64,000 nucleotides of DNA from Glycomyces niveus (GTDB taxonomy: Bacteria > Actinomycetota > Actinomycetes > Mycobacteriales > Micromonosporaceae), in contig NZ_JAGFNP010000007.1 in NCBI RefSeq assembly GCF_017592475.1, positions 124,001 to 188,000 of the forward strand, read 5' to 3'. Below the pieces are notes generated by a model, which searched no databases, was not told the origin of the DNA, and saw only the letters and a list, made by a program, of their open reading frames with translations. The first letter of the stretch is position 1. The number at the start of each line of letters is the position of its first letter. Both the position numbers and the translations under genes were made by a program. This document shows positions 1 through 41,017 of the stretch, piece after piece.

Positions 1-2477
1 TCGTGGCCTGGTTCGGCGGCTCCTACGACTTCGCCGTCGACGTCGCGGACGGCCTCTACACCGCCCGCGTCATCACCGGCGACTACGTCGGCTCGGCGCG
101 CGCGAACGTCAAGTTCGAGGGCGTCGACTACGGCGCGGCCAACGCCGCCTCGAGGTCGATCCTCACCAAGGACTTCGAAGGCATCACCGTCGAAGACGGC
201 CAACTCGACATCAACATCTCCGGCCAGACCGGGCACCTCAACGGCCTCGAGCTCACCCGCATCGGCGACGTCCCCGGCGGCGGGAACGAAGGCCCCGACG
301 AGCCGTGCACCGAATGCGCCGAGCAGATCGAGAGCCTCGACCGCGCCCCCGTCGCCGTCAGCGTCGAAGGCGGGAACTTCCTGAGCTGGCGCAGCCTCGC
401 GCTCGACCCGGAAGGCCTGGCGTTCAACGTCTACCGCGACGGCCGGCTCATCACGCCCGAGCCGACGCAGCTGACCAACCTCACCGACCAGGGCGGCACC
501 GCGAACTCGACGTACTGGGTCGCCACCGTCGCCGAAGGCGTCGAGACCGGTTACACCAAGGCCTTCGAGGTCTGGAACGACCAGTACATCGACATCGACA
601 TGGAGCGACCCGAAGGCGGCACGACCCCCGACGGCGTCGCGTACACGTACGCGCCGAACGACGCGGCCGTGGCCGACGTGGACGGCGACGGCGTCTACGA
701 GATCATCCAGAAGTGGGACCCGTCCAACTCCAAGGACAACTCCCGCAGCGGCTACACCGGCAACGTCTACATCGACGCGTACACCCTCAGCGGCGAACGC
801 CTGTGGCGCATCGACCTCGGCAGGAACATCCGGGCCGGGGCGCACTACACGCAGCTCGTCGCCTACGACCTCGACTCCGACGGCAAGGCCGAAGTCGCGC
901 TCAAGACCGCCGACGGCACCGTCGACGGCGAGGGCAACGTCATCGGCGACGCCGCCTCGGACCACCGCGGCACCGACGGCCGCGTGCTCAAGGGCCCCGA
1001 GTACCTGACGATCTTCAACGGCCAGACCGGCGCCGCCATGGAGACCGCCGACTGGGCGCCCGCGCGCGGCGACATCTGCTCGTGGGGCGACTGCTACGGC
1101 AACCGCGGCGACCGCCTCATGCTCGCCGTCGCCTACCTCGACGGCGTGCACCCGTCCCTGATCACCAACCGCGGCATCTACGCCAAGACCGAGATCACCG
1201 CCTGGAACTGGGACGGCGACAACCTGCCGCAGCTGTGGAACTTCAGCTCCGACCGCTGGGGCGGCAAGTACGCGGGCCAGGGCAACCACCAGATGTCCAT
1301 CGCCGACGTCGACGACGACGGGCGCGACGAGATCGTGTTCGGCGCCATGACGATCAACGACGACGGGACGCCGCTGTACTCGACCGGCCTCGGCCACGGC
1401 GACGCGCTGCACGTCTCCGACTTCGACCCCTCCAACGAGGGCCTGGAGATCTTCAGCCCGTTCGAGTGCATGTCGTGCTCGGGCAACAAGGCCGGCGCGT
1501 TCCGCGACGCCGACACCGCCGAAGTCCTCTGGTCCATCCCGGGCACCAAGGACACCGGCCGCGGCACTTGCGGCGACATCGACCCGAACTACGCGGGCGC
1601 CGAATGCTGGGCCGTCTCGACCACCGGCGCGTGGAACGCCCGCGAGGGCGCGCTGCACGCCGCCGACGGCACCCTCATCGGCACTTCGATCCCGTCGGCG
1701 AACTCGATGGTCTGGTGGGACGGCGACCTCGGCCGCGAGATCTTCGACCACGAGTTCAACGAACCCGACTACGTCCCGGTCTACCCGTACATCGCGGAAT
1801 GGGACCACGAGACCGGCGCCCAGGAGGAGATCTTCACCCCCGAGGGCGTCGACACCAACAACGGCACCAAGGGCAACGCGGTCCTCACCGGCGACCTGCT
1901 CGGCGACTGGCGCGAGGAGGTGATCCTGCGCAAGGAGTCCAACGACGGCGTGCGCCTGTTCACCACCACGATCGCGTCCGACCACGCCCTGCCGACGCTG
2001 ATGAACGACCCGCAGTACCGCCTCGCCGTGTCCTGGCAGAACGTGTCCTACAACCAGCCGCCGTGGCCGAGCTACTTCATCGGCTACGACATGGCGGCCC
2101 CCGAGCTCGAGACCGTCGTCTCCGGCCCGGGCCGCGACACCGCCGCCGCGCCGTACGCGACAGCGTCCTGCGAGATCGACTACAAGGTGGCCGCCGACTG
2201 GGGCGACGGCTTCGTCGTCCAGATCAAGATCACCAACACCGGCGACACGGCGATCGACGAGTTCGACCTCGCCTGGAAGTCCGGCGGCGTCACCACCGTC
2301 GAATACGACTGGGGCGGCACCATCGCCATCGACGGCGACTCCATGACCGCCGACCCGGCCTTCTGGAACTTCCCCCTGAAGCCCGGCCACACCAAGCAGA
2401 TCGGCTACCAGGGCACCGGCGACCCGCACGACCCCGGCATGTTCCTCATGAACGGCCAGGTCTGCGCCACCGCATGA
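1..2477 (+). CDS. Rhamnogalacturonan endolyase (PL11) with C-terminal CBM2-like module, 5' truncated
   Basis: The frame is open to the left edge, so the N-terminus and any signal peptide lie outside the window. The visible 825 residues begin with about 85 residues of a beta-rich malectin/CBM35-like module. A Gly/Pro/Cys linker follows, then the PL11 (YesW-type) catalytic region at roughly residues 110-715. That region carries repeated calcium-type Asp loops: DVDGDG near 224, DLDSDG near 290 and DVDDDG near 435. The last 100 residues look like a family 2 carbohydrate-binding module, with paired Cys near each end and several exposed Trp. PL11 enzymes cleave rhamnogalacturonan I, the pectin backbone, by beta-elimination outside the cell, so a saprophytic role is inferred. 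Transcription ends at a strong hairpin shared with the convergent neighbour. Family assignment is confident; endo versus exo action is not decided. Confidence 0.88.
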   Translation, partial: VAWFGGSYDFAVDVADGLYTARVITGDYVGSARANVKFEGVDYGAANAASRSILTKDFEGITVEDGQLDINISGQTGHLNGLELTRIGDVPGGGNEGPDEPCTECAEQIESLDRAPVAVSVEGGNFLSWRSLALDPEGLAFNVYRDGRLITPEPTQLTNLTDQGGTANSTYWVATVAEGVETGYTKAFEVWNDQYIDIDMERPEGGTTPDGVAYTYAPNDAAVADVDGDGVYEIIQKWDPSNSKDNSRSGYTGNVYIDAYTLSGERLWRIDLGRNIRAGAHYTQLVAYDLDSDGKAEVALKTADGTVDGEGNVIGDAASDHRGTDGRVLKGPEYLTIFNGQTGAAMETADWAPARGDICSWGDCYGNRGDRLMLAVAYLDGVHPSLITNRGIYAKTEITAWNWDGDNLPQLWNFSSDRWGGKYAGQGNHQMSIADVDDDGRDEIVFGAMTINDDGTPLYSTGLGHGDALHVSDFDPSNEGLEIFSPFECMSCSGNKAGAFRDADTAEVLWSIPGTKDTGRGTCGDIDPNYAGAECWAVSTTGAWNAREGALHAADGTLIGTSIPSANSMVWWDGDLGREIFDHEFNEPDYVPVYPYIAEWDHETGAQEEIFTPEGVDTNNGTKGNAVLTGDLLGDWREEVILRKESNDGVRLFTTTIASDHALPTLMNDPQYRLAVSWQNVSYNQPPWPSYFIGYDMAAPELETVVSGPGRDTAAAPYATASCEIDYKVAADWGDGFVVQIKITNTGDTAIDEFDLAWKSGGVTTVEYDWGGTIAIDGDSMTADPAFWNFPLKPGHTKQIGYQGTGDPHDPGMFLMNGQVCATA

Positions 2478-32627: not shown

Positions 32628-32906
32628 TCCGCGTTCCCGGACCTTCTGCGCATCGCCGGAACGTGCCAACCTGAATTTCTCGGGAATCTCTTGTATCCGA
32701 TCGGACTCGGCGGTCTCTTCCCTGGTGAAAGTCGCGATATGCGCCAGCCCGTGGCGTTCGCGGCATTCCGGGCCTGAATGCCTCCCGACCTATCGGCGCC
32801 ACGCGAGAACCCTGCGCATGGCGATGGGCGGGGAGAATGGATCGCGAAGGATCCCCCTCCTCACCGGACAACCGCATAGACCCCCGAGACCAGCAGAGGA
32901 GCTCCC
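32628..32906 (+). promoter_or_regulatory. Leader of the protease-sigma-CHAT cluster with nested inverted repeats
   Basis: No gene is seen in this 280-bp stretch. Two nested inverted repeats stand out: outer arms CGTGGCG (32750-32756) and CGCCACG (32797-32803), inner arms GGCATTC (32762-32768) and GAATGCC (32776-32782). They lie about 100 bp before the first gene and could be an operator or a leader RNA structure. TTGTATCCGA at about 32691-32700 also occurs upstream of the SigE-family gene near 11490. Base composition is lower in G+C than the surrounding genes. Confidence 0.4.
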
Positions 32907-34457
32907 ATGCGATTGGTGTTCGCCGATAACGAACCCCATCTGAAGCCCAACCCCCGCCGCGACCACATGAGCGGCGTCCCCGAACTCTCCTACGCGACCC
33001 TGGACCGCCACGGCGGCCGCGTCCTTGCCCCGGGACAGGTCATGCGCACTGCGGGCCACTCGGCACCGATCGGCACGATCTACCGGTACGACCGCTTGCT
33101 CGTCGACGAGTCGGTCATCCGCGACAGTGAGGCCCGCGAAAGGCTCGAAGAGGCGATCCGCCCCACTGGAATGCAGATGGAGAGCCAGGCCGCGAGCACG
33201 ATTGTGCCCGGGCAGGGCGCATACCGAGTCCCGGTGCTTTCCATGCACGGGGATCAGGCCGGTGTCGACGCCTGGTCGCTGCTCCAACGACTTCGCACCG
33301 ACACTGGTGAGCAGAGCCTCCCGGGCGCGCTGCTCGACAAGGTTCGCCTTGAACACCTGATGATCTGCGCCAAGAGCGGCGGCGGCGGCATCGGCAGTGG
33401 CGAGCCGCCCATCGGCGGTGGACATCCGCACCCGCTCGGCCGCATCCCTGTCGACATGGTCAACCCCATGCCCGTCCGTCAAAAGTTGGACCGGCGCTTG
33501 CGCGTCGCGGTCCTGGACACCGGTGTCCCCGTACGCCACCCCGCGTTCGACGTCTCGGACCGCACTGAACACGACGACACCTTCGTAGTGGTCGACCACG
33601 CCTTCCAGGCGAAACTCGGCGATCACTCCGATTCGCCCGCGATCCCGCTCGACGATCCCTGGGAAGGCCCGGTCCACGAGCCGACCCTCATCGGCGAGGT
33701 CGCCAGCCACTTCGGCCACGGCACCTTCATTACCGGGCTGCTTCGGCAGATGTCGCCCGACGTGCAGGTCTATTCGCTGCGCGTCGTCCACAACGACGGC
33801 ATGGCGTACGAGCACGAGGTCATCGCGGCCATACACCATGTCGCAGACCAAGTCGAGGCGGCGCGAAACGGCGACCGCGAGGCGTTCGGCGTCGATCTGG
33901 TAGTCCTGGCAATGGGCTACGTAGACGAGAACCCGGAGGACCAGCCCGGCGGCTGGATCGGGGATGCCGTGCAACGCCTCGCGACACTCGGTGTCCCAGT
34001 GGTCGCCGCCGCGGGGAACCAGTCGTCGGACCGCCCCTTCTATCCCGCGGCGTTCGCGGCGCACCCGAGGGCGGAGGACACCGCACCGATCCTGAGCGTC
34101 GGCGCGCTCAACCCCAACCGCAAGATCGCGATGTTCTCCAATGAAGGCCCTTGGGTCTCGTGCTACGCCACCGGGGCCGGGTTGGTCAGCACGTACCCCT
34201 GCGAGGCTTTGGGCTCGCGAATGCCTGAACGCCGAGCCATGTCCACGATTCTCAACCGCCACAGGGAAAGCCACGACCCTGACGACTTCTCTGCCGGGTA
34301 CGCCGTCTGGAGCGGGACTTCATTCGCGGCGCCGATCGCGGCTTCGTTCCTCGTGAACGCGATGTCGGAGTCCGAGCTCAGCGAGGTCGGCAGTGCCGCC
34401 CAATCGTCAGCGCGTGCGCACGAAGCGTTGAAGCGGTTGAAGAAGCAGCTAGCCTGA
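32907..34457 (+). CDS. Cytoplasmic subtilisin-like serine protease (S8), first gene of the sigma/CHAT cluster
   Basis: The 516-residue protein has no signal peptide. The first 165 residues are a mixed alpha/beta region that could be an inhibitory prodomain. A Gly/His/Pro linker follows at about 160-185, then an S8 domain with the full triad: Asp204 in AVLDTGVP, His271 in FGHGTFITG and Ser469 in SGTSFAAP. The oxyanion Asn is in AAAGNQSSD. It should therefore cut proteins inside the cell. A GAGGAG site lies 6 nt before the ATG. The sigma factor gene starts 4 nt after its stop. Codons are noticeably less GC-biased than in flanking core genes. I infer it is a regulated protease of a signalling or conflict system; its substrate is unknown. 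Confidence 0.87.
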   Translation: MRLVFADNEPHLKPNPRRDHMSGVPELSYATLDRHGGRVLAPGQVMRTAGHSAPIGTIYRYDRLLVDESVIRDSEARERLEEAIRPTGMQMESQAASTIVPGQGAYRVPVLSMHGDQAGVDAWSLLQRLRTDTGEQSLPGALLDKVRLEHLMICAKSGGGGIGSGEPPIGGGHPHPLGRIPVDMVNPMPVRQKLDRRLRVAVLDTGVPVRHPAFDVSDRTEHDDTFVVVDHAFQAKLGDHSDSPAIPLDDPWEGPVHEPTLIGEVASHFGHGTFITGLLRQMSPDVQVYSLRVVHNDGMAYEHEVIAAIHHVADQVEAARNGDREAFGVDLVVLAMGYVDENPEDQPGGWIGDAVQRLATLGVPVVAAAGNQSSDRPFYPAAFAAHPRAEDTAPILSVGALNPNRKIAMFSNEGPWVSCYATGAGLVSTYPCEALGSRMPERRAMSTILNRHRESHDPDDFSAGYAVWSGTSFAAPIAASFLVNAMSESELSEVGSAAQSSARAHEALKRLKKQLA

Positions 34458-34461
34458 GTCC

Positions 34462-35079
34462 ATGAACGCGATTTCGGCTCACCCGGTGGACACCGTCGAC
34501 TATGACAGGCGCGCGCGGCTCTACCTCGCCGCGCGCGCCGGCGACGGCATCGCGCAGCGGGCCCTCGTCACGGAGCTCAACGAGGTCCTGTGGCGCGCGG
34601 CCCGTCGCACCGGACTGGACCGTGAACGCGCCGCTGATGTTGTGCAGACCGCATGGCTTCGGTTGTGGCACATCGAAAAAGAACTGGAACATCCTCGCGC
34701 GCTGACCAAGTGGCTGCTCACCACCGTCAGCCGCGAGGCCTGGAAGCAGATCGGGCACATGCGGCGCGAAGTCATAGCCGACCCGATCGAGATCCAGGAG
34801 GAAGGGACCCTCGAAAGCGCCGAGGACGGACTCGTCCGCGTCGCTGAACGAGAGGCCGTGCGCCGCGCCTTCCTCGCCCAATCTGAGCGGTGCCGGCGGC
34901 TGCTCGCCTTCGTGGCGACGGTCGCCCGGCCCGACTACGACGTCATCGCCGAGGCATTGGGGATGAAAAGGGGGAGCATCGGTCCAACCCGGGGCCGCTG
35001 CTTGGACAAACTGAGGAGAACGCTCCTGGACGATCCGTCCTGGAGCGCAGGTGAGGAGCGGGATGAAAATGCGGCCTGA
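34462..35079 (+). CDS. ECF-like RNA polymerase sigma factor of the protease/CHAT cluster
   Basis: The 205-residue protein has sigma region 2 at about residues 20-95 (LYLAARAGDGIAQRALV and DVVQTAWLRLWH). A C-terminal region 4 follows, with the helix-turn-helix DVIAEALGMKRGSIGPTRGRCLDKLRRTL. The two are joined by an acidic linker (IQEEGTLESAEDG). The GPTRGRCLDKL ending is a recognisable sigma subgroup in actinobacteria. It begins 4 nt after the protease gene and overlaps the next gene by 17 nt, so expression is coupled. No membrane anti-sigma gene is adjacent; control may instead come from the proteases or the following small protein. Target promoters are unknown. Confidence 0.85.
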   Translation: MNAISAHPVDTVDYDRRARLYLAARAGDGIAQRALVTELNEVLWRAARRTGLDRERAADVVQTAWLRLWHIEKELEHPRALTKWLLTTVSREAWKQIGHMRREVIADPIEIQEEGTLESAEDGLVRVAEREAVRRAFLAQSERCRRLLAFVATVARPDYDVIAEALGMKRGSIGPTRGRCLDKLRRTLLDDPSWSAGEERDENAA

Positions 35080-35599
35080 AGACGAGAGTCAGAGCGAATT
35101 CGAGCCATTGGACTCCTGCGATGAGCGGATCTTGTCAGTGATCAACGAACTGCATCACAGGCATGATCCGATCCCGGAGGACCTGAACGAGCGAGTCCAG
35201 TTCGTACTCGAACTGGAAGCGGAACTCGACGCGAGAGTGGCAAGGGTATCGCGCGCCGGGGAACTCGTATCCATGCGGGGCGACGCGGAACTGGCGGTCA
35301 GTCAGGGTGATCCGGCTTCGGTCACGTTCGACTGCGAGACGGTCACCGTGATGGTGACGCCGCGCCCCTCCGCGCCAGGGGGGCTTCGTCTTGACGGGTG
35401 GATCGGGCCCGAAGGCATATATGAGGTCGAACTTAGGAGCCCCGAGGGTTCGCGAAGGGCCGCAACCGATGAGTCCGGCAGATTCGCGCTCGAAGGCGTA
35501 CCCGAGGGGCAGATGCTCCAACTGGTGATTCGGCCCGAACAGGCACTGCAGCGGATAGGCCTACCGGCAGTCGTCGTGACGCCCGCGGTCCGCCTGTAG
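35063..35599 (+). CDS. Two-part small protein with C-terminal carboxypeptidase-regulatory-like fold
   Basis: The 178-residue protein begins with a helical acidic part (DERILSVINELHHRHDPIPEDLNERVQFVLELEAELDARVARVS, given here as pieces: DERILSVINEL, DPIPEDLNERVQFVLELEAE). A beta-rich C-terminal part follows (LDGWIGPEGIYEVELRSPEG, then TDESGRFALEGVPEG), which looks like a CarboxypepD-regulatory or transthyretin-like Ig fold. The DPIPxxLxxRVxF helix is, from memory, common in proteins encoded between sigma and CHAT genes. It may bind the sigma factor or serve as protease substrate; this is inference. ATG 35063 has AGGAG 4 nt upstream; ATG 35069 is possible. It overlaps the sigma gene by 17 nt. 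Confidence 0.7.
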   Translation: MKMRPEDESQSEFEPLDSCDERILSVINELHHRHDPIPEDLNERVQFVLELEAELDARVARVSRAGELVSMRGDAELAVSQGDPASVTFDCETVTVMVTPRPSAPGGLRLDGWIGPEGIYEVELRSPEGSRRAATDESGRFALEGVPEGQMLQLVIRPEQALQRIGLPAVVVTPAVRL

Positions 35600-35609
35600 C
35601 ATGTGAAGA

Positions 35610-38123
35610 ATGCTCCAGGGTGCTTGGCGATTGTTCACACGCGGTCAGCGCCTCAGCCGTCGCGGCCAAGTTGCCGAATCCGCAGGAGTTCTGGAGAAGG
35701 CCCTCGCACTCCTGAATTGGAGCGAAGAACGACTCCCGGAAGCGGGGACCGCGCAGGCACGCTTGATCGCCAAAATCCTGATGGTGATGGCATTCAACCG
35801 AGCGAGCCTCGGCGACTCGGCCGAGGGACAGCGCCTGCTTGACTTCGCCGACATCTTGGCTTTCGCGGATGATCGGGGAATTCTGCTGCATCAGCGCGCG
35901 CTGATTCTATGGCAGAGCGGTCGACTGTCCGACGCGCTGCATTGGTTCGAATTGGCCGAACCGCTACTGGCGGAATACGGACCCGACAACTTCTATGCGG
36001 CATCGTTCTACAATCGAGCCTTGGTATGGAGAGACCTGGGTGAATTGCGCAAAGGAATGGAGAGCATCCGGCGTGCGATCGAGCTCTACAACGACATCGA
36101 CGTACCCGTCAACCGGGCACGGGCCATCCATATCGAGGCTCTACTCCTGCTCGATCTCGGGGAGGTCACCAAGGCGCTCAAAGCATTCGACGTGGCCAGA
36201 GATCAGTTCCGGAAGCTCGCCCCGGACCTTGAATCCTTCATCGACGCCTCCTACGCCCATGCGTTGCTCAGTGTCGGTATGTACCGGCAGGCAGCAGAGC
36301 GGTGGGAACACGCCATAGCCGCGCATCGACTCGCCGGGGACCTTCGGAATGCGGCGATCGATGAATACTGGCGGGCATTGGCCGCCTTTGAGGACAACCG
36401 ATCCGAACTGGCCGACCGATGGGCCAGGCAGGCCATGGATTCGCTGTACAGCCAGGGGAACGAGCCGATGGCGTTCCTCGCCCGCCTCCTCATCCTCCAA
36501 GCGCAGTTCGATTCGGGACAGCACGGCCCGGACTTCGCGGATAAGGTGCAGCGCCTGTGCGATGCCCTGGAGCAGCGCGGTTGGACCCTCAGACTCAAGC
36601 AGGCCAAGATCCTCGCCGCTCGCGCCAAGATCAAAGCTGGAGAGTTCGACGGTGTCGAACAAGTGCTCCAGGGCGAACACGGTGGACCAGGCCACGATGC
36701 GCTGGCCGAAGAGTTGGCGCGGTATCTCGCCAAAGCTGAACTCGCGGTGGCGCAGGATCGCGACCCCCTTCCCGAACTGCTCGCCGGACTCGATCTGCTC
36801 GATGAGTACCGGATGGCCTTCGGCTCGGTCGAGTTCCAGGCGGGGGCCTCGGCCCTCGGGATCCAGCTCGCGTTCATGGGACTCGGCCATGTGGCCAGGC
36901 ACAGCGGCCCAGAGGACATGCTGTGGTGGGTCGAGCGCAGCCGTGCCCAGGCGCTTCGAATTCCGCCGGTCAAGCCCAGCACCGATCCCGCGGCCCGTGA
37001 AGCGCTCGGTCAGCTTCGGCAAGCACGCCAGCGGCTCTGGGATTTGCAGGTCGAAGGCGGAGACGACGCCGAGGCGCGCAGTCGGGTCCAAGAGATCGAA
37101 GAGGAGATCCGCGCTCATGAGCGGGCGCAACCTGGCTCGGGAAAACGAGCCGACCGCATCGCGCCCGATGCCATTCAAGATCTCGCCGAGTCGCGGGACA
37201 CGGTCGTGGTCAACATGTTCGAGGTCGCGAATAAGGTCTGTGCGGTGCTCGCCGGGGGCGACGGCCTCCAGTTCACGTGGATGATGCCGCTTGACGAGGC
37301 AACGGAGCTCGAACGTCGTCTGGGCGCGGACCTCGACGCGCTCGGTAGCCGCCGGAGGCTTCACCCCCGTATCCAGGCGAGCGTCGAAGGCGCGATCCGC
37401 CGAAATGCGACCGCGCTCGCCGACGGCATCTGGAAGCCGATCGCCGATTATGTCGGCGACCGGCAGGTGGTCATCGTCCCGCACAGCCAGCTCAACTGGG
37501 TGCCGTGGCCGTTGTTGCCGCCCCTTCGCGGTCGGGCCGTGACCATTTCTCCTTCGGCCGAAGCATGGTGGCGCGCGGTGCATCGAACCCGCGCCGACGG
37601 TCCTGCTCTGGTCGCGGCTGGTCCAGCGCTGTCCCTGGCCGGCGGTGAGATTGAAACGATTGCGGGCCTCTATCCGGGCGCCAACCTGATCACCGCCGAT
37701 GAGTCGGATCCTGAGATGGTCCTAAAGGCGCTCGACAATGCTGCTGTCGCTCACATTGCGGCCCATGGGCATCACGAGCCTGACAATGTGCTCTTCTCCC
37801 GGCTCGACTTCGGTCTGGGTCCGCTCAACGCCTATGAGCTCCTCGGCCTCGATCAACCCCCCGGCCATGTCGTGCTCTCCTCCTGCGACCTCGGTCGGTC
37901 GACCGTCGCGGTCGGCAACGAAACGCTCGGCTTCACCGCGGCGCTCTTGCACGCCGGAACTTCGACCGTCGTCTCGAGCCTTGCGAAAGTTCCCGACGAG
38001 ATGGCCGCCGAGATGATGATCGAGTACCACAAGCGCTGCGTTGCAGGTGCCAGCCCCGCTGAAGCCCTTGCGGCCGTGGGCGAGCACAGGCCGTGGCATC
38101 CGTTCGTCGCGTTCGGCGCGTGA
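35610..38123 (+). CDS. TPR-CHAT protease (caspase-like)
   Basis: The 837-residue protein has about 430 residues of tetratricopeptide-like helical repeats (for example RGQVAESAGVLEKALALL, SGRLSDALHWFELAEPLL and DLGEVTKALKAFDVARDQF). A helical linker follows, and the C-terminal CHAT domain starts near residue 560. Its catalytic dyad is intact: His719 in AHIAAHGHHEP and Cys759 in VLSSCDLGRS, 40 residues apart as in CHAT and caspase folds. CHAT proteases are caspase relatives; the TPR part usually senses a partner or RNP. It starts 10 nt after the small protein gene. Third codon positions are clearly A/T-richer than in core genes, suggesting transfer. Likely role: second protease of a signalling or immunity cascade with the S8 enzyme and sigma factor. 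Confidence 0.88.
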   Translation: MLQGAWRLFTRGQRLSRRGQVAESAGVLEKALALLNWSEERLPEAGTAQARLIAKILMVMAFNRASLGDSAEGQRLLDFADILAFADDRGILLHQRALILWQSGRLSDALHWFELAEPLLAEYGPDNFYAASFYNRALVWRDLGELRKGMESIRRAIELYNDIDVPVNRARAIHIEALLLLDLGEVTKALKAFDVARDQFRKLAPDLESFIDASYAHALLSVGMYRQAAERWEHAIAAHRLAGDLRNAAIDEYWRALAAFEDNRSELADRWARQAMDSLYSQGNEPMAFLARLLILQAQFDSGQHGPDFADKVQRLCDALEQRGWTLRLKQAKILAARAKIKAGEFDGVEQVLQGEHGGPGHDALAEELARYLAKAELAVAQDRDPLPELLAGLDLLDEYRMAFGSVEFQAGASALGIQLAFMGLGHVARHSGPEDMLWWVERSRAQALRIPPVKPSTDPAAREALGQLRQARQRLWDLQVEGGDDAEARSRVQEIEEEIRAHERAQPGSGKRADRIAPDAIQDLAESRDTVVVNMFEVANKVCAVLAGGDGLQFTWMMPLDEATELERRLGADLDALGSRRRLHPRIQASVEGAIRRNATALADGIWKPIADYVGDRQVVIVPHSQLNWVPWPLLPPLRGRAVTISPSAEAWWRAVHRTRADGPALVAAGPALSLAGGEIETIAGLYPGANLITADESDPEMVLKALDNAAVAHIAAHGHHEPDNVLFSRLDFGLGPLNAYELLGLDQPPGHVVLSSCDLGRSTVAVGNETLGFTAALLHAGTSTVVSSLAKVPDEMAAEMMIEYHKRCVAGASPAEALAAVGEHRPWHPFVAFGA

Positions 38124-39908: not shown

Positions 39909-39971
39909 CGACCCCGCCAGCGGCCGACGCGTCGCTGCGCGACCCGCGACGCGGCTTCCGGGGCCGCTGCG

Positions 39972-40012
39972 CGAATGTTCGGTACAATCAATTCGCCGTT
40001 GCCGAACATTCG
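39972..40012 (+). promoter_or_regulatory. Inverted-repeat element A upstream of fic
   Basis: Perfect 11-bp arms CGAATGTTCGG (39972-39982) and CCGAACATTCG (40002-40012) enclose 19 bp that include TACAAT (39983-39988), a good -10. The ribosome binding site of the Fic gene follows at once. A near copy lies after the gene at 41079-41117. Confidence 0.65.
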
Positions 40013-40021
40013 TGGAGGGTC

Positions 40022-41017
40022 ATGTCACCGCGCGGAAGGCCGTCCCGTCAGGTGCATTACGCCCGGCTCGACGCCGCGGTAGAGCAGCTTCGCACGGAGT
40101 ACGGCGGGCTCCCCAAACCCGATCAAGCCGCTGACATCTGGTCCGACCTCTGGCATCGCGACACACACCACAGCACCGCGATCGAGGGCAACACGCTGGC
40201 GCTGTCCGACGTGGAGCAACTGCTGGAACGCGGTCGGACGGCCCGGCCGAGACCCGTGGCCGAATACCTCGAGGTCCAGGGCTACGCCGATGCCGCCAAA
40301 TGGGTCTATGCCCAGGGGATCTCGGACGGGGACGGGCCGCTGGTCACGCTTCAGGAGGTCCGGCAGCTCCACTTCCAGTCGATGCGGCTGGTCTGGGAGA
40401 CCGCTCCGCATCCGCACGCCTCCAAGGATGAAGGGCCGGGAGCCTTCCGTCGACACCAGATCGCGGCCTTCCCCGGCGGCATGAAGCCGCCGTCGTGGAC
40501 CGAGGTCGATTCGCTGATGCGGACCTGGGCAGACGAAGCCTGCGATTTCGATGGGCTGCCCGGTTCGCATGAGATGGAACGGCTCGCCCACCTGCACCAC
40601 CGCTTCGAGCAGATCCATCCGTTCCTCGACGGCGACGGCCGCACCGGCCGACTGCTCCTCAACCTGCTCTTGCTGCGGCGCGGCTACGCGCCGATCGTCA
40701 TTGAGAAGCGCCGCCGCGAGCGGTACCTCGATTGCCTGCAGGACGCCGACCGCGGCAACCTTGCGAGCCTCGCGGAACTGCTCACCCGGCAGGCGCTCGA
40801 CAGCATCGAGCGCTTCGCCCTGCCCGCGCTCGCGGGCACCGATCAACTCGTGCCGCTGGCAGGGCTGGCAGGCGAGGACATCGGCGAGCCCGCCCTACGG
40901 GCCGCCGCCATCCGCGGTCGGCTGCGCGCGGCGAAGAACGCATCCGGCCAGTGGCTGAGTAGCCGCCAGGCGGTCGACGAGTACCTTGCGTCCCGCCGCC
41001 GACGCCGCAGGGAATGA
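40022..41017 (+). CDS. Fic-family AMPylase with C-terminal helix-turn-helix-like region
   Basis: The 331-residue protein has the Fic active-site loop HPFLDGDGRTGR starting at His199, here with Asp in place of the usual Asn of the GNGR segment. It also has an N-terminal inhibitory helix motif Ser51-TAI-Glu55-Gly56-Asn57, which marks class II autoinhibited Fic enzymes. These transfer AMP, or another nucleotide part, to protein hydroxyls. The last 55 residues (AIRGRLRAAKNASGQWLSSRQAVDEYL, cited in pieces: GRLRAAKNASG, LSSRQAVDEYL, then poly-Arg) look like a MerR/excisionase-type winged helix. ATG 40022 follows GGAGGG by 4 nt. The gene is bracketed by two similar inverted repeats, its likely binding sites or its borders. 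Confidence 0.87.
   Translation: MSPRGRPSRQVHYARLDAAVEQLRTEYGGLPKPDQAADIWSDLWHRDTHHSTAIEGNTLALSDVEQLLERGRTARPRPVAEYLEVQGYADAAKWVYAQGISDGDGPLVTLQEVRQLHFQSMRLVWETAPHPHASKDEGPGAFRRHQIAAFPGGMKPPSWTEVDSLMRTWADEACDFDGLPGSHEMERLAHLHHRFEQIHPFLDGDGRTGRLLLNLLLLRRGYAPIVIEKRRRERYLDCLQDADRGNLASLAELLTRQALDSIERFALPALAGTDQLVPLAGLAGEDIGEPALRAAAIRGRLRAAKNASGQWLSSRQAVDEYLASRRRRRRE

What the first reader, a model, noticed from the sequence alone, without database searches (positions are those of the whole stretch)
32907..38123. Four-gene cluster: cytoplasmic subtilisin, sigma factor, small two-part protein and TPR-CHAT protease
Two proteases of different clans flank a sigma factor in one tightly coupled unit (gaps of 4, -17 and 10 nt). 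The subtilisin has no signal peptide but a full triad (D204, H271, S469). The CHAT domain keeps its dyad (H719, C759). In type III-E CRISPR loci, a TPR-CHAT protease cuts a partner that controls a sigma factor, so a protease-to-sigma output has a precedent. Here no CRISPR or RNA-guided component is present, so the trigger must differ. I propose a stand-alone proteolytic signalling or abortive-defence system in which one protease activates the other or releases the sigma factor.
Basis: partly seen in the sequence, partly recalled or inferred. Interest (0 to 1): 0.87.

Follow-up and report, generated by a model that had tools for sequence, protein, structure and literature searches.

The report
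Protease-controlled sigma factor gene cluster
A soil bacterium carries a conserved gene cluster in which two protein-cutting enzymes sit beside a gene switch and a small partner protein; the cluster is a known but untested kind, and the sequence now suggests that it turns itself on through its own promoter.

Summary
The four-gene cluster is real: S8 subtilisin, ECF sigma factor, 178-aa two-domain protein, TPR-CHAT protease; gaps 4, -17 and 10 nt. The catalytic serine is S472, not S469. Adjacency is conserved: in 61 related genomes the S8 and small-protein families occur in the same 33, including all 22 Glycomyces. It matches the published context of sigma group ECF54 (subtilase, CHAT, 'carboxypeptidase'), for which proteolytic control was proposed, not tested. 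The 'carboxypeptidase' is probably the non-catalytic small protein. New here: (i) a promoter GTATC-N17-CTCYT precedes the operon in 21/22 Glycomyces and, relaxed, in 61/95 other loci (2.9 in random windows), so sigma probably transcribes its own operon; (ii) the S8 is modelled as a zymogen; (iii) in 25 of 70 other S8 loci the pro/catalytic junction region carries perfect tandem peptide repeats that differ between lineages; (iv) sigma+small is the steadiest pair, CHAT next, S8 optional; (v) in 16 loci the cluster lies between rplA and rplJ of the ribosomal-protein/rpoB string. Genus-wide presence and near-absence from plasmids argue against mobile defence. Cleavage of the small protein by CHAT remains inferred.

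The parts
32692..32719 (+). Predicted sigma-specific promoter of the operon: TGTATC (32692-32697) - N17 - CTCTT (32715-32719), 187 nt before the S8 ATG
   Evidence: Alignment of 22 Glycomyces upstream regions; strict pattern at the operon in 21/22 genomes, with 2 further sites in all 22 and 1 control match; relaxed form in 61 of 95 other operon-upstream regions vs 2.9 in random windows
32720..32906 (+). Conserved untranslated leader with blocks GGCATTCCGGGC..GAGTGCC and GAGGAG..CTCCTC, function unknown
   Evidence: Conserved in 22 Glycomyces; consensus folding gave little structural support; no Rfam family near gathering score
32907..34457 (+). S8 subtilisin-like protease, 516 aa, predicted zymogen; triad D204 (33516-33518), H271 (33717-33719), S472 (34320-34322)
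   Evidence: Pfam, alignments, AF2 model pLDDT 83.2, pTM 0.89
33087..33365 (+). I9-like inhibitory propeptide domain (residues about 61-153; 'I9' is my label, the calls name pro-subtilisins)
   Evidence: VIA-align: unautoprocessed pro-subtilisins 3whi, 2e1p, 4jp8 align with model 61..516 over 301-322 residues against 221-247 for most chains that start at the catalytic domain (Foldseek)
33378..33476 (+). Propeptide/catalytic junction (residues about 158-190), low-confidence linker; the place that carries tandem repeats in other lineages, not in Glycomyces
   Evidence: pLDDT under 50 at 158-174; repeats
34462..35079 (+). ECF-type sigma factor, 205 aa
   Evidence: TIGR02937 8.5e-14, Sigma70_r2, profile hits to solved ECF sigma factors
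35063..35599 (+). Small two-domain protein, 178 aa: N-terminal helical pair (18-34, 41-69), disordered linker (66-82), C-terminal beta-sandwich (87-158); candidate soluble sigma inhibitor
   Evidence: AF2, weak FN3/Ig-like fold matches, CarboxypepD_reg in 32 of 58 family members; the window protein itself only E 0.013, below Pfam's cut-off
35610..38123 (+). TPR-CHAT caspase-like protease, 837 aa; dyad H719 (37764-37766), C759 (37884-37886)
   Evidence: Pfam CHAT 1.5e-27 at residues 598-822 plus TPR; dyad conservation

Best explanation
It is a chromosomal, largely vertically inherited, ECF54-type regulatory module of Actinomycetota. The sigma factor is held inactive by the small two-domain protein, whose helical N-terminus binds sigma and whose C-terminal beta-sandwich is joined by a disordered linker. 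An unknown intracellular signal, probably bound by the TPR superhelix, activates the CHAT protease, which cleaves the small protein and frees sigma. Sigma then transcribes its own operon from the GTATC-N17-CTCYT promoter and thereby amplifies both proteases. The S8 enzyme is made as a zymogen with an I9-like propeptide; cleavage at the pro/catalytic junction, by itself or by CHAT, releases an intracellular subtilisin that executes or terminates the response. Shown by sequence or model: operon, conservation, catalytic residues, promoter element and its association with the operon, zymogen fold, optional S8. Inferred: sigma-small binding, cleavage of the small protein, who cleaves whom, the signal, and that the promoter is read by this sigma factor.
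For: Operon and families. Genus-wide presence and matching occurrence of S8 (E 1e-60) and small protein (single-sequence search): the same 33 of 61 genomes; a more sensitive profile of the small protein adds 3 genomes with weak matches (36 of 61). Presence in non-redundant non-Glycomyces loci with at least 4.5 kb on both sides: sigma 75, CHAT 68, S8 58 of 76. Pairwise-distance correlation sigma/small/CHAT r 0.83-0.85, with S8 lower at 0.61-0.74, in 62 non-Glycomyces loci. Promoter. In Glycomyces the strict element is at this operon and almost nowhere else, so the operon itself is the main predicted target. Zymogen. Small protein anatomy. Precedent for CHAT cleaving a sigma inhibitor: Csx29/Csx30/CASP-sigma (passages of PMC10028731). 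Proteolytic control already proposed for ECF54 (passages of PMC8999054).
Against: No complex of sigma with the small protein was modelled or tested. The small protein matches no anti-sigma family, and the review's view of ECF54 is that there is no anti-sigma factor. 34 of 95 other loci lack the promoter element in the region scanned, among them 9 of 11 Actinoplanes/Paractinoplanes loci. The relaxed element is not enriched genome-wide: 84 sites in 22 Glycomyces genomes against 138 for the control pattern. Distance correlations mostly reflect shared species history. Six complete loci have sigma and small protein but neither CHAT nor S8 within the fetched stretch (L178, L181, L186, L188, L189, L196) and L136 is a seventh, so CHAT cannot be the only trigger unless encoded elsewhere.
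Confidence: 0.5

Rival explanations
1. As proposed in print for ECF54: no anti-sigma factor; the peptidases keep the system off by degrading the sigma factor itself, and the signal blocks degradation.
For: Stated as a proposal in the review PMC8999054 (passages). Two cytoplasmic proteases with intact catalytic residues are encoded with the sigma factor.
Against: S8 is missing from 18 of 76 and CHAT from 8 of 76 complete non-Glycomyces loci, whereas the small protein stays with sigma in 75 of 76 (the loci were found through the small protein, so that figure is biased). The review's 'carboxypeptidase' probably is the small protein, which has no peptidase domain. Self-amplified production of proteases that destroy sigma would be a negative loop, hard to square with conserved autoregulation unless it is a pulse generator.
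Confidence: 0.2
2. The small protein is an adaptor or co-activator, not an inhibitor: it links sigma to the CHAT protease or to another ligand sensed by its beta-sandwich.
For: Steady association with sigma, ligand-binding-like sandwich fold, weak matches only.
Against: No direct evidence either way; a helical domain plus a flexible linker next to a sigma gene is a usual anatomy of an inhibitor (general knowledge).
Confidence: 0.2
3. Stand-alone abortive-infection defence: an invader activates the CHAT or S8 protease, with cell death as the outcome.
For: Caspase-like and subtilisin proteases occur in conflict systems (passages of PMC7159879 and PMC8195603; the second describes caspase, ECF sigma and TPR genes together). 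The proteases are predicted to be self-amplified. A Fic gene with PADLOC matches lies 1.8 kb downstream in the window.
Against: Present throughout the genus beside a constant neighbour, between rplA and rplJ elsewhere, practically absent from plasmids and phages; PADLOC finds nothing convincing in the four proteins; the Fic gene is found in the fetched stretch of only 2 of 21 other Glycomyces.
Confidence: 0.1

Closest known systems
ECF54 sigma-factor group (Huang 2015; Casas-Pastor 2021; both cited in the review PMC8999054, of which passages were read; the primary papers are not held)
   Same: Actinobacterial ECF sigma factor with subtilase, CHAT and 'carboxypeptidase' proteins in its conserved context; control by proteolysis proposed.
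   Different: The review says there is no anti-sigma factor and names a carboxypeptidase; here the corresponding protein is a non-catalytic two-domain protein with a CarboxypepD_reg-like fold that accompanies sigma in nearly all loci examined. Promoter, zymogen, junction repeats and rpl-operon location are not mentioned in the passages seen.
Type III-E CRISPR protease output: Csx29 (TPR-CHAT), Csx30, CASP-sigma
   Same: [quoted passage not shown] CASP-sigma motifs occur in its own locus (PMC10028731, passages).
   Different: No CRISPR array seen (Cas7-11 not searched for); Csx29 profile only 19 bits against a cut-off of 300; the small protein is 178 aa against 565 for Csx30; an S8 zymogen is added; actinobacterial, core location.
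Pro-subtilisins with propeptide (Tk-subtilisin, pro-subtilisin E, PCSK9)
   Same: Propeptide domain packed on an S8 catalytic domain, junction to be cleaved.
   Different: No secretion signal seen by eye, encoded with a sigma factor, long variable junction with tandem repeats in other lineages.
EACC2/TRADD-N conflict systems with caspase, ECF sigma and TPR genes (PMC8195603, passages)
   Same: Caspase-fold protease next to ECF sigma and TPR protein, transcriptional output proposed.
   Different: Different adaptor and TPR families named there; no S8/CarboxypepD_reg partner in the passages seen; this locus behaves as a core locus.

Membership tests
ECF sigma factor | Sigma70 region 2 and 4 without regions 1 and 3 | tested here: met
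   TIGR02937 sigma70-ECF over residues 31-187, above cut-off; Sigma70_r2 above cut-off; conserved C-terminal block, but no Pfam region-4 match was listed for the window protein
ECF54 | Genomic context: subtilase, CHAT protein, carboxypeptidase-annotated protein | tested here: met
   S8, CHAT and CarboxypepD_reg-like small protein adjacent; context definition from passages of PMC8999054
ECF54 | Sigma sequence falls in the ECF54 profile/phylogenetic group | not testable with these tools
   ECF group profiles not available; Casas-Pastor 2021 not held
Type III-E CRISPR Csx29 module | Csx29 family CHAT protein | tested here: not met
   NF041237 E 3.9e-4, 19.4 bits, cut-off 300
Type III-E CRISPR Csx29 module | CRISPR array nearby | tested here: not met
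   No close direct-repeat family of 22 nt or more in window 24000-48000
Type III-E CRISPR Csx29 module | Cas7-11 effector gene nearby | not tested
   No Cas7-11 profile was run; only the four genes and near neighbours were scanned
CHAT (caspase-like) peptidase | CHAT domain with His/Cys dyad | tested here: met
   Pfam CHAT 97 bits, cut-off 24; H719/C759
S8 subtilase zymogen | Asp/His/Ser triad plus oxyanion Asn | tested here: met
   D204, H271, N371, S472 in 93 of 99 ORFs, the rest fragments
S8 subtilase zymogen | Propeptide domain packed on the catalytic domain | tested here: met
   In a predicted model only: 61..516 aligned with unautoprocessed pro-subtilisins, Z 25-27; no experiment
Soluble anti-sigma factor | Known anti-sigma domain or demonstrated sigma binding | tested here: inconclusive
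   No anti-sigma match in Pfam/NCBIfam or PDB profile search; complex not modelled
Anti-phage defence system | Match to catalogued defence proteins or mobile/defence-island context | tested here: not met
   PADLOC only weak subtilase (20.8 bits) and PDC-S65 (12 bits) hits for the four proteins; core location and near absence from plasmids/phages. Only five neighbours were scanned for defence genes; one, a Fic gene, matches SoFic/PDC-S04

The most novel reading that the evidence does not exclude
A CRISPR-free two-protease cascade in which the caspase-like CHAT enzyme cuts both a soluble sigma inhibitor and a subtilisin zymogen at a lineage-specific repeated bait sequence. This would make a self-amplifying proteolytic and transcriptional switch that is a core cell-fate system of Actinomycetota, lodged in the ribosomal-protein/RNA-polymerase operon in part of the phylum, of which the type III-E CRISPR protease/sigma output would be a relative by design.
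Probability: 0.2. Interest if true: 0.85.

Novelty: new member of a known kind. Interest (0 to 1): 0.55.

Why it matters
ECF54 has been listed as 'regulated by proteolysis' from gene context. The promoter element, the identity of the supposed carboxypeptidase as a probable sigma partner, the zymogen prediction for the subtilisin and the ranking of parts (sigma+small, then CHAT, then S8) turn it into a set of direct tests in ordinary laboratory actinomycetes. If CHAT cleaves the small protein, caspase-like proteases controlling sigma factors would be a widespread bacterial signalling principle and not a CRISPR oddity. The lineage-specific perfect repeats at the zymogen junction could be a natural record of protease-substrate co-evolution.

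Tried and rejected
Defence-system reading: PADLOC gave nothing convincing for the four proteins. In the plasmid collection the small protein hits one record, an 11.85-Mb 'plasmid' that by size looks like a chromosome; the CHAT protein hits four records, none over 80% of its length, three of them at the CHAT-domain part only. In the phage collection, searched with the small protein only, one unverified 7.5-kb faecal scaffold matches, and it carries the bacterial cluster with the S8 cut by the record's start.

CRISPR link: no repeat array, no Csx29 membership.

Genome-wide regulon: the relaxed element (GTATC-N17-CTCYT) gives 84 sites in 22 Glycomyces genomes against 138 for the reversed control pattern (rows, summed). 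Apart from the operon it is at or below chance, so no wider regulon is claimed. One site 85-86 nt before a LysR gene recurs, by its sequence, in five genomes (four fetched); there it overlaps an open frame on the other strand, so it was left as a lead. Eleven distant genomes gave counts near control as well.

Second, outward-facing sites: seen in 12 loci, but behind seven of them (L040, L088, L093, L098, L100, L104, L175) no convincing gene was found (L100 only).

Shared repeat bait: the junction repeat units were searched in all frames of the same locus with one mismatch allowed; no array occurs outside the S8 gene, only single near-matches. The run of exact copies is defined by protein identity, so the absence of non-synonymous changes inside it is by construction; the telling figure is 171 synonymous differences over 94 adjacent unit pairs.

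RNA element in the leader: consensus folding weak; Rfam best hit E 0.98, below gathering, inside the CHAT gene.

sigma-70 promoter/terminator scan: no sigma-70-like site on the operon strand; terminator-like sites 5 against 3.1 expected.

Foldseek for the small protein: FN3/Ig-like sandwich matches, one with E under 0.001; no anti-sigma fold among the 50 rows shown, which is not evidence of absence.

Literature: 'ECF54' occurs in three held papers, one of them relevant. The primary ECF papers are not held. Listings showed no paper titled on this cluster; searches did list the review PMC8999054, whose passages name its context.

Rows dropped: L043-L063 and L064-L084 are the same Glycomyces genomes and were counted once; L091 (same as L032) and L106 (same small protein as L105) were dropped from non-redundant counts. 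Loci with under 4.5 kb on one side were left out of presence counts. L042 and L057 end at contig edges. In one search, 17 S8 ORFs gave no DTG string; the full-length ones proved intact by alignment (or are copies of such), the rest are fragments or score below 60 bits. The single array at L109 may lie outside the junction.


Full report
Observation. The cluster at 32907-38123 is as described: four same-strand genes, S8 subtilisin (516 aa), ECF sigma factor (205 aa), a 178-aa protein and a TPR-CHAT protein (837 aa), separated by 4, -17 and 10 nt. Domain searches agree. One residue is wrong in the finding: the catalytic serine is S472 in the GTS motif, not S469. D204, H271, oxyanion N371 and S472 are all kept in 93 of 99 non-redundant S8 ORFs of related loci, and the CHAT dyad H719/C759 in 107 of 116 CHAT ORFs; the exceptions are gene pieces cut by contig ends or broken frames.

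Where it is. The genome is a Glycomyces: contigs of its genus mates have the same lengths as named Glycomyces contigs. Each of the four families gives one match in the window's own genome at the thresholds used. The small protein was found in 33 of 61 related genomes, including all 22 of the genus; its profile found 36 of 61, the three extra ones weak. The S8 family at E 1e-60 was found in exactly the same 33 genomes. CHAT at E 1e-30 was found in those 33 plus 11 more, and sigma at E 1e-30 in 46. A phylum-wide draw gave the small protein in 29 of 396 genomes, the window's own included. A scan of genome contigs gave 102 relatives, of which the best 80 were fetched: Glycomyces, Micromonosporaceae, Nakamurella, Amycolatopsis, Cellulomonas, Oerskovia, Promicromonospora and others.

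Which parts belong together. Non-redundant loci with at least 4.5 kb on both sides of the small gene were counted. In Glycomyces all 20 such loci have sigma, CHAT and S8. Outside Glycomyces 75 of 76 have sigma, 68 CHAT, 58 S8. These loci were found through the small protein, so the figures do not measure how often sigma lacks it. S8 stands before sigma, or between small and CHAT, or is divergent, or is missing. It is missing in Amycolatopsis and Streptoalloteichus. In Cellulomonas a divergent gene for a Nal1/trypsin-like protease adjoins the cluster in all five loci of this genus in the set (Pfam Trypsin_2 above cut-off in the two scanned); one of the five, L130, has a second, divergent cluster with an S8 beside it. 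In other lineages (L178, L181, L186, L188, L189, L196) sigma and small stand without CHAT or S8 in the fetched stretch. CHAT is duplicated in the four Promicromonospora loci and in L038/L039; S8 in L038, L039 and L123. Among 62 non-Glycomyces loci, pairwise distances of sigma, small and CHAT correlate at 0.83-0.85, those with S8 at 0.61-0.74; shared ancestry explains much of this, but S8 is the loosest part. Of seven more distant sigma or sigma-CHAT loci, five show a diverged small protein at low scores (17-55 bits) after sigma and two none.

Core location. In 16 of 97 non-redundant non-Glycomyces loci the cluster lies between rplA and rplJ of the string nusG-rplK-rplA-[cluster]-rplJ-rplL-rpoB. 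In four more one side is seen: L113 and L142 are cut by contig ends, L040 shows no rplJ in the 2.7 kb downstream, L130 no rplA upstream. In Glycomyces an aldehyde dehydrogenase gene lies by the cluster in 21 of 21 other genomes (Pfam). Plasmid and phage collections hold practically none. This is the behaviour of a core regulatory locus.

Promoter. Aligning 22 Glycomyces upstream regions shows a bipartite element TGTATC-N17-CTCTT, at 32692-32719 in the window. The strict pattern occurs at the operon in 21 of 22 genomes, with only 2 other sites in all 22 genomes and 1 control match. Outside the genus a relaxed form (one mismatch, spacer 16-18) lies within about 350 nt upstream of the operon in 61 of 95 loci; random windows from the same loci give 2.9 on average (maximum 8 in 200 draws), and the strict form (GTATC-N17/18-CTCYT) 41 against 0.88. 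In 63 rows, duplicates included, the spacer is 17 in 50 and the base after GTATC is A in 39; in Glycomyces it is C or T. In 12 loci a second site faces away from the operon. Genes found behind such sites: APH-like in L095, L113 and L176, a Nal1/trypsin-like protease (just below Pfam cut-offs) in L173, and in L041 an unclassified frame with a secretion-like N-terminus; behind the other seven no convincing gene was found. Single sites elsewhere precede a Calx-beta protein gene in L187 and a weakly B_lectin-like one in L098. Conservation of the element together with this sigma family is best explained by autoregulation; that this sigma reads it is inferred.

S8 is a predicted zymogen. The AF2 model (pLDDT 83, pTM 0.89) matches unautoprocessed pro-subtilisins best in Foldseek; structural alignment with them runs from residue 61 through the catalytic domain (301-322 residues) against 221-247 for most chains that start at the catalytic domain. 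Residues 158-174, between propeptide and catalytic domain, are of low confidence. This junction region carries perfect tandem peptide repeats in other lineages: 26 arrays of at least 2.5 exact copies in 25 of 70 non-Glycomyces S8-bearing loci, 22 distinct units, nearly all hexapeptides such as PFHSAF, PYTQPF, NPAYQG. Adjacent copies differ by 171 synonymous changes over 94 unit pairs, so most arrays are not fresh slippage products; the peptide is being kept. Controls: 0 of 67 S8 catalytic parts, 1 of 85 small, 1 of 94 sigma, 6 of 97 CHAT ORFs. The unit does not recur as an array in neighbouring genes.

Small protein. The AF2 model (pLDDT 83, pTM 0.52) has two helices (18-34, 41-69), a low-confidence stretch 66-82 and a beta-sandwich 87-158 with FN3/Ig-like matches. 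32 of 58 members match Pfam CarboxypepD_reg; the window's own protein reaches only E 0.013. No peptidase domain was found in it. I therefore read the 'carboxypeptidase' of the published ECF54 context as this protein; the primary papers could not be seen.

Mechanism. The most likely reading is an inhibitor (small) cleaved by CHAT, release of sigma, self-amplification through the promoter, and an S8 zymogen as executor or terminator. It works like the Csx29-Csx30-CASP-sigma output (passages of PMC10028731) without being a member of it: Csx29 profile score 19 against 300, no repeat array; Cas7-11 was not searched for. Binding, cleavage, signal and hierarchy of the two proteases are inferred.

Novelty. 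[quoted passage not shown] Whether the promoter, zymogen fold, junction repeats, rpl-operon location or the small protein as sigma partner are in print could not be settled: the two primary ECF papers are not held, and the listings showed none. I file it as a new member of a known kind with new mechanistic leads.

Noticed in passing
L088, L093, L102, L104, L118, L122, L127, L173-L177, L179, L185, L191 and others (S8 gene): Perfect tandem hexapeptide repeats in the pro/catalytic junction region of the S8 protease, with a different unit in different lineages and synonymous differences between copies.
   Followed up: partly
L035, L095, L097, L098, L102, L118, L122, L127, L131, L132, L134, L137, L138, L140, L141, L143 (both sides); L040, L113, L130, L142 (one side): Cluster lodged in the nusG-rplKA-rplJL-rpoB gene string, on the same strand, so sigma-driven read-through into rplJL-rpoB is conceivable.
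   Followed up: partly
L130, L134, L137, L142, L143, L173, L187: Nal1/trypsin-like protease gene near the cluster; in Cellulomonas it adjoins the cluster where no S8 does.
   Followed up: partly
window 32720-32906: Long conserved leader between promoter and S8 start in 22 Glycomyces, with two imperfect inverted repeats and an ACAACCGCATA block; consensus folding weak.
   Followed up: partly
L224-L227: A promoter-like site 85-86 nt before a LysR-family gene, conserved in several Glycomyces.
   Followed up: partly
L234 (5678-7222), L235, L236: One Glycomyces genome has a second, isolated S8 of the family and two others a second sigma without small protein or CHAT nearby.
   Followed up: partly
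L244 (MT838002.1): A 7.5-kb record labelled bacteriophage, from human faeces, holds the S8-sigma-small-CHAT cluster, S8 cut by the record's start; probably bacterial DNA mislabelled.
   Followed up: yes
PLSDB record NZ_LT559118.1: An 11.85-Mb Nonomuraea record in the plasmid collection matches the small protein and CHAT next to each other; its size suggests a chromosome.
   Followed up: no
L047/L076, L037, L041, L099, L100: CHAT frame interrupted in Glycomyces sambucus (L047/L076), L037 and L100; S8 split over several frames in L041, L099 and L100.
   Followed up: no
window 39938-41017: Fic-family gene with PADLOC SoFic/PDC-S04 matches downstream of the cluster; found in the fetched stretch of only 2 of 21 other Glycomyces.
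   Followed up: partly
L130: A Cellulomonas locus with two clusters back to back, the second with diverged sigma, small, S8 and CHAT.
   Followed up: no
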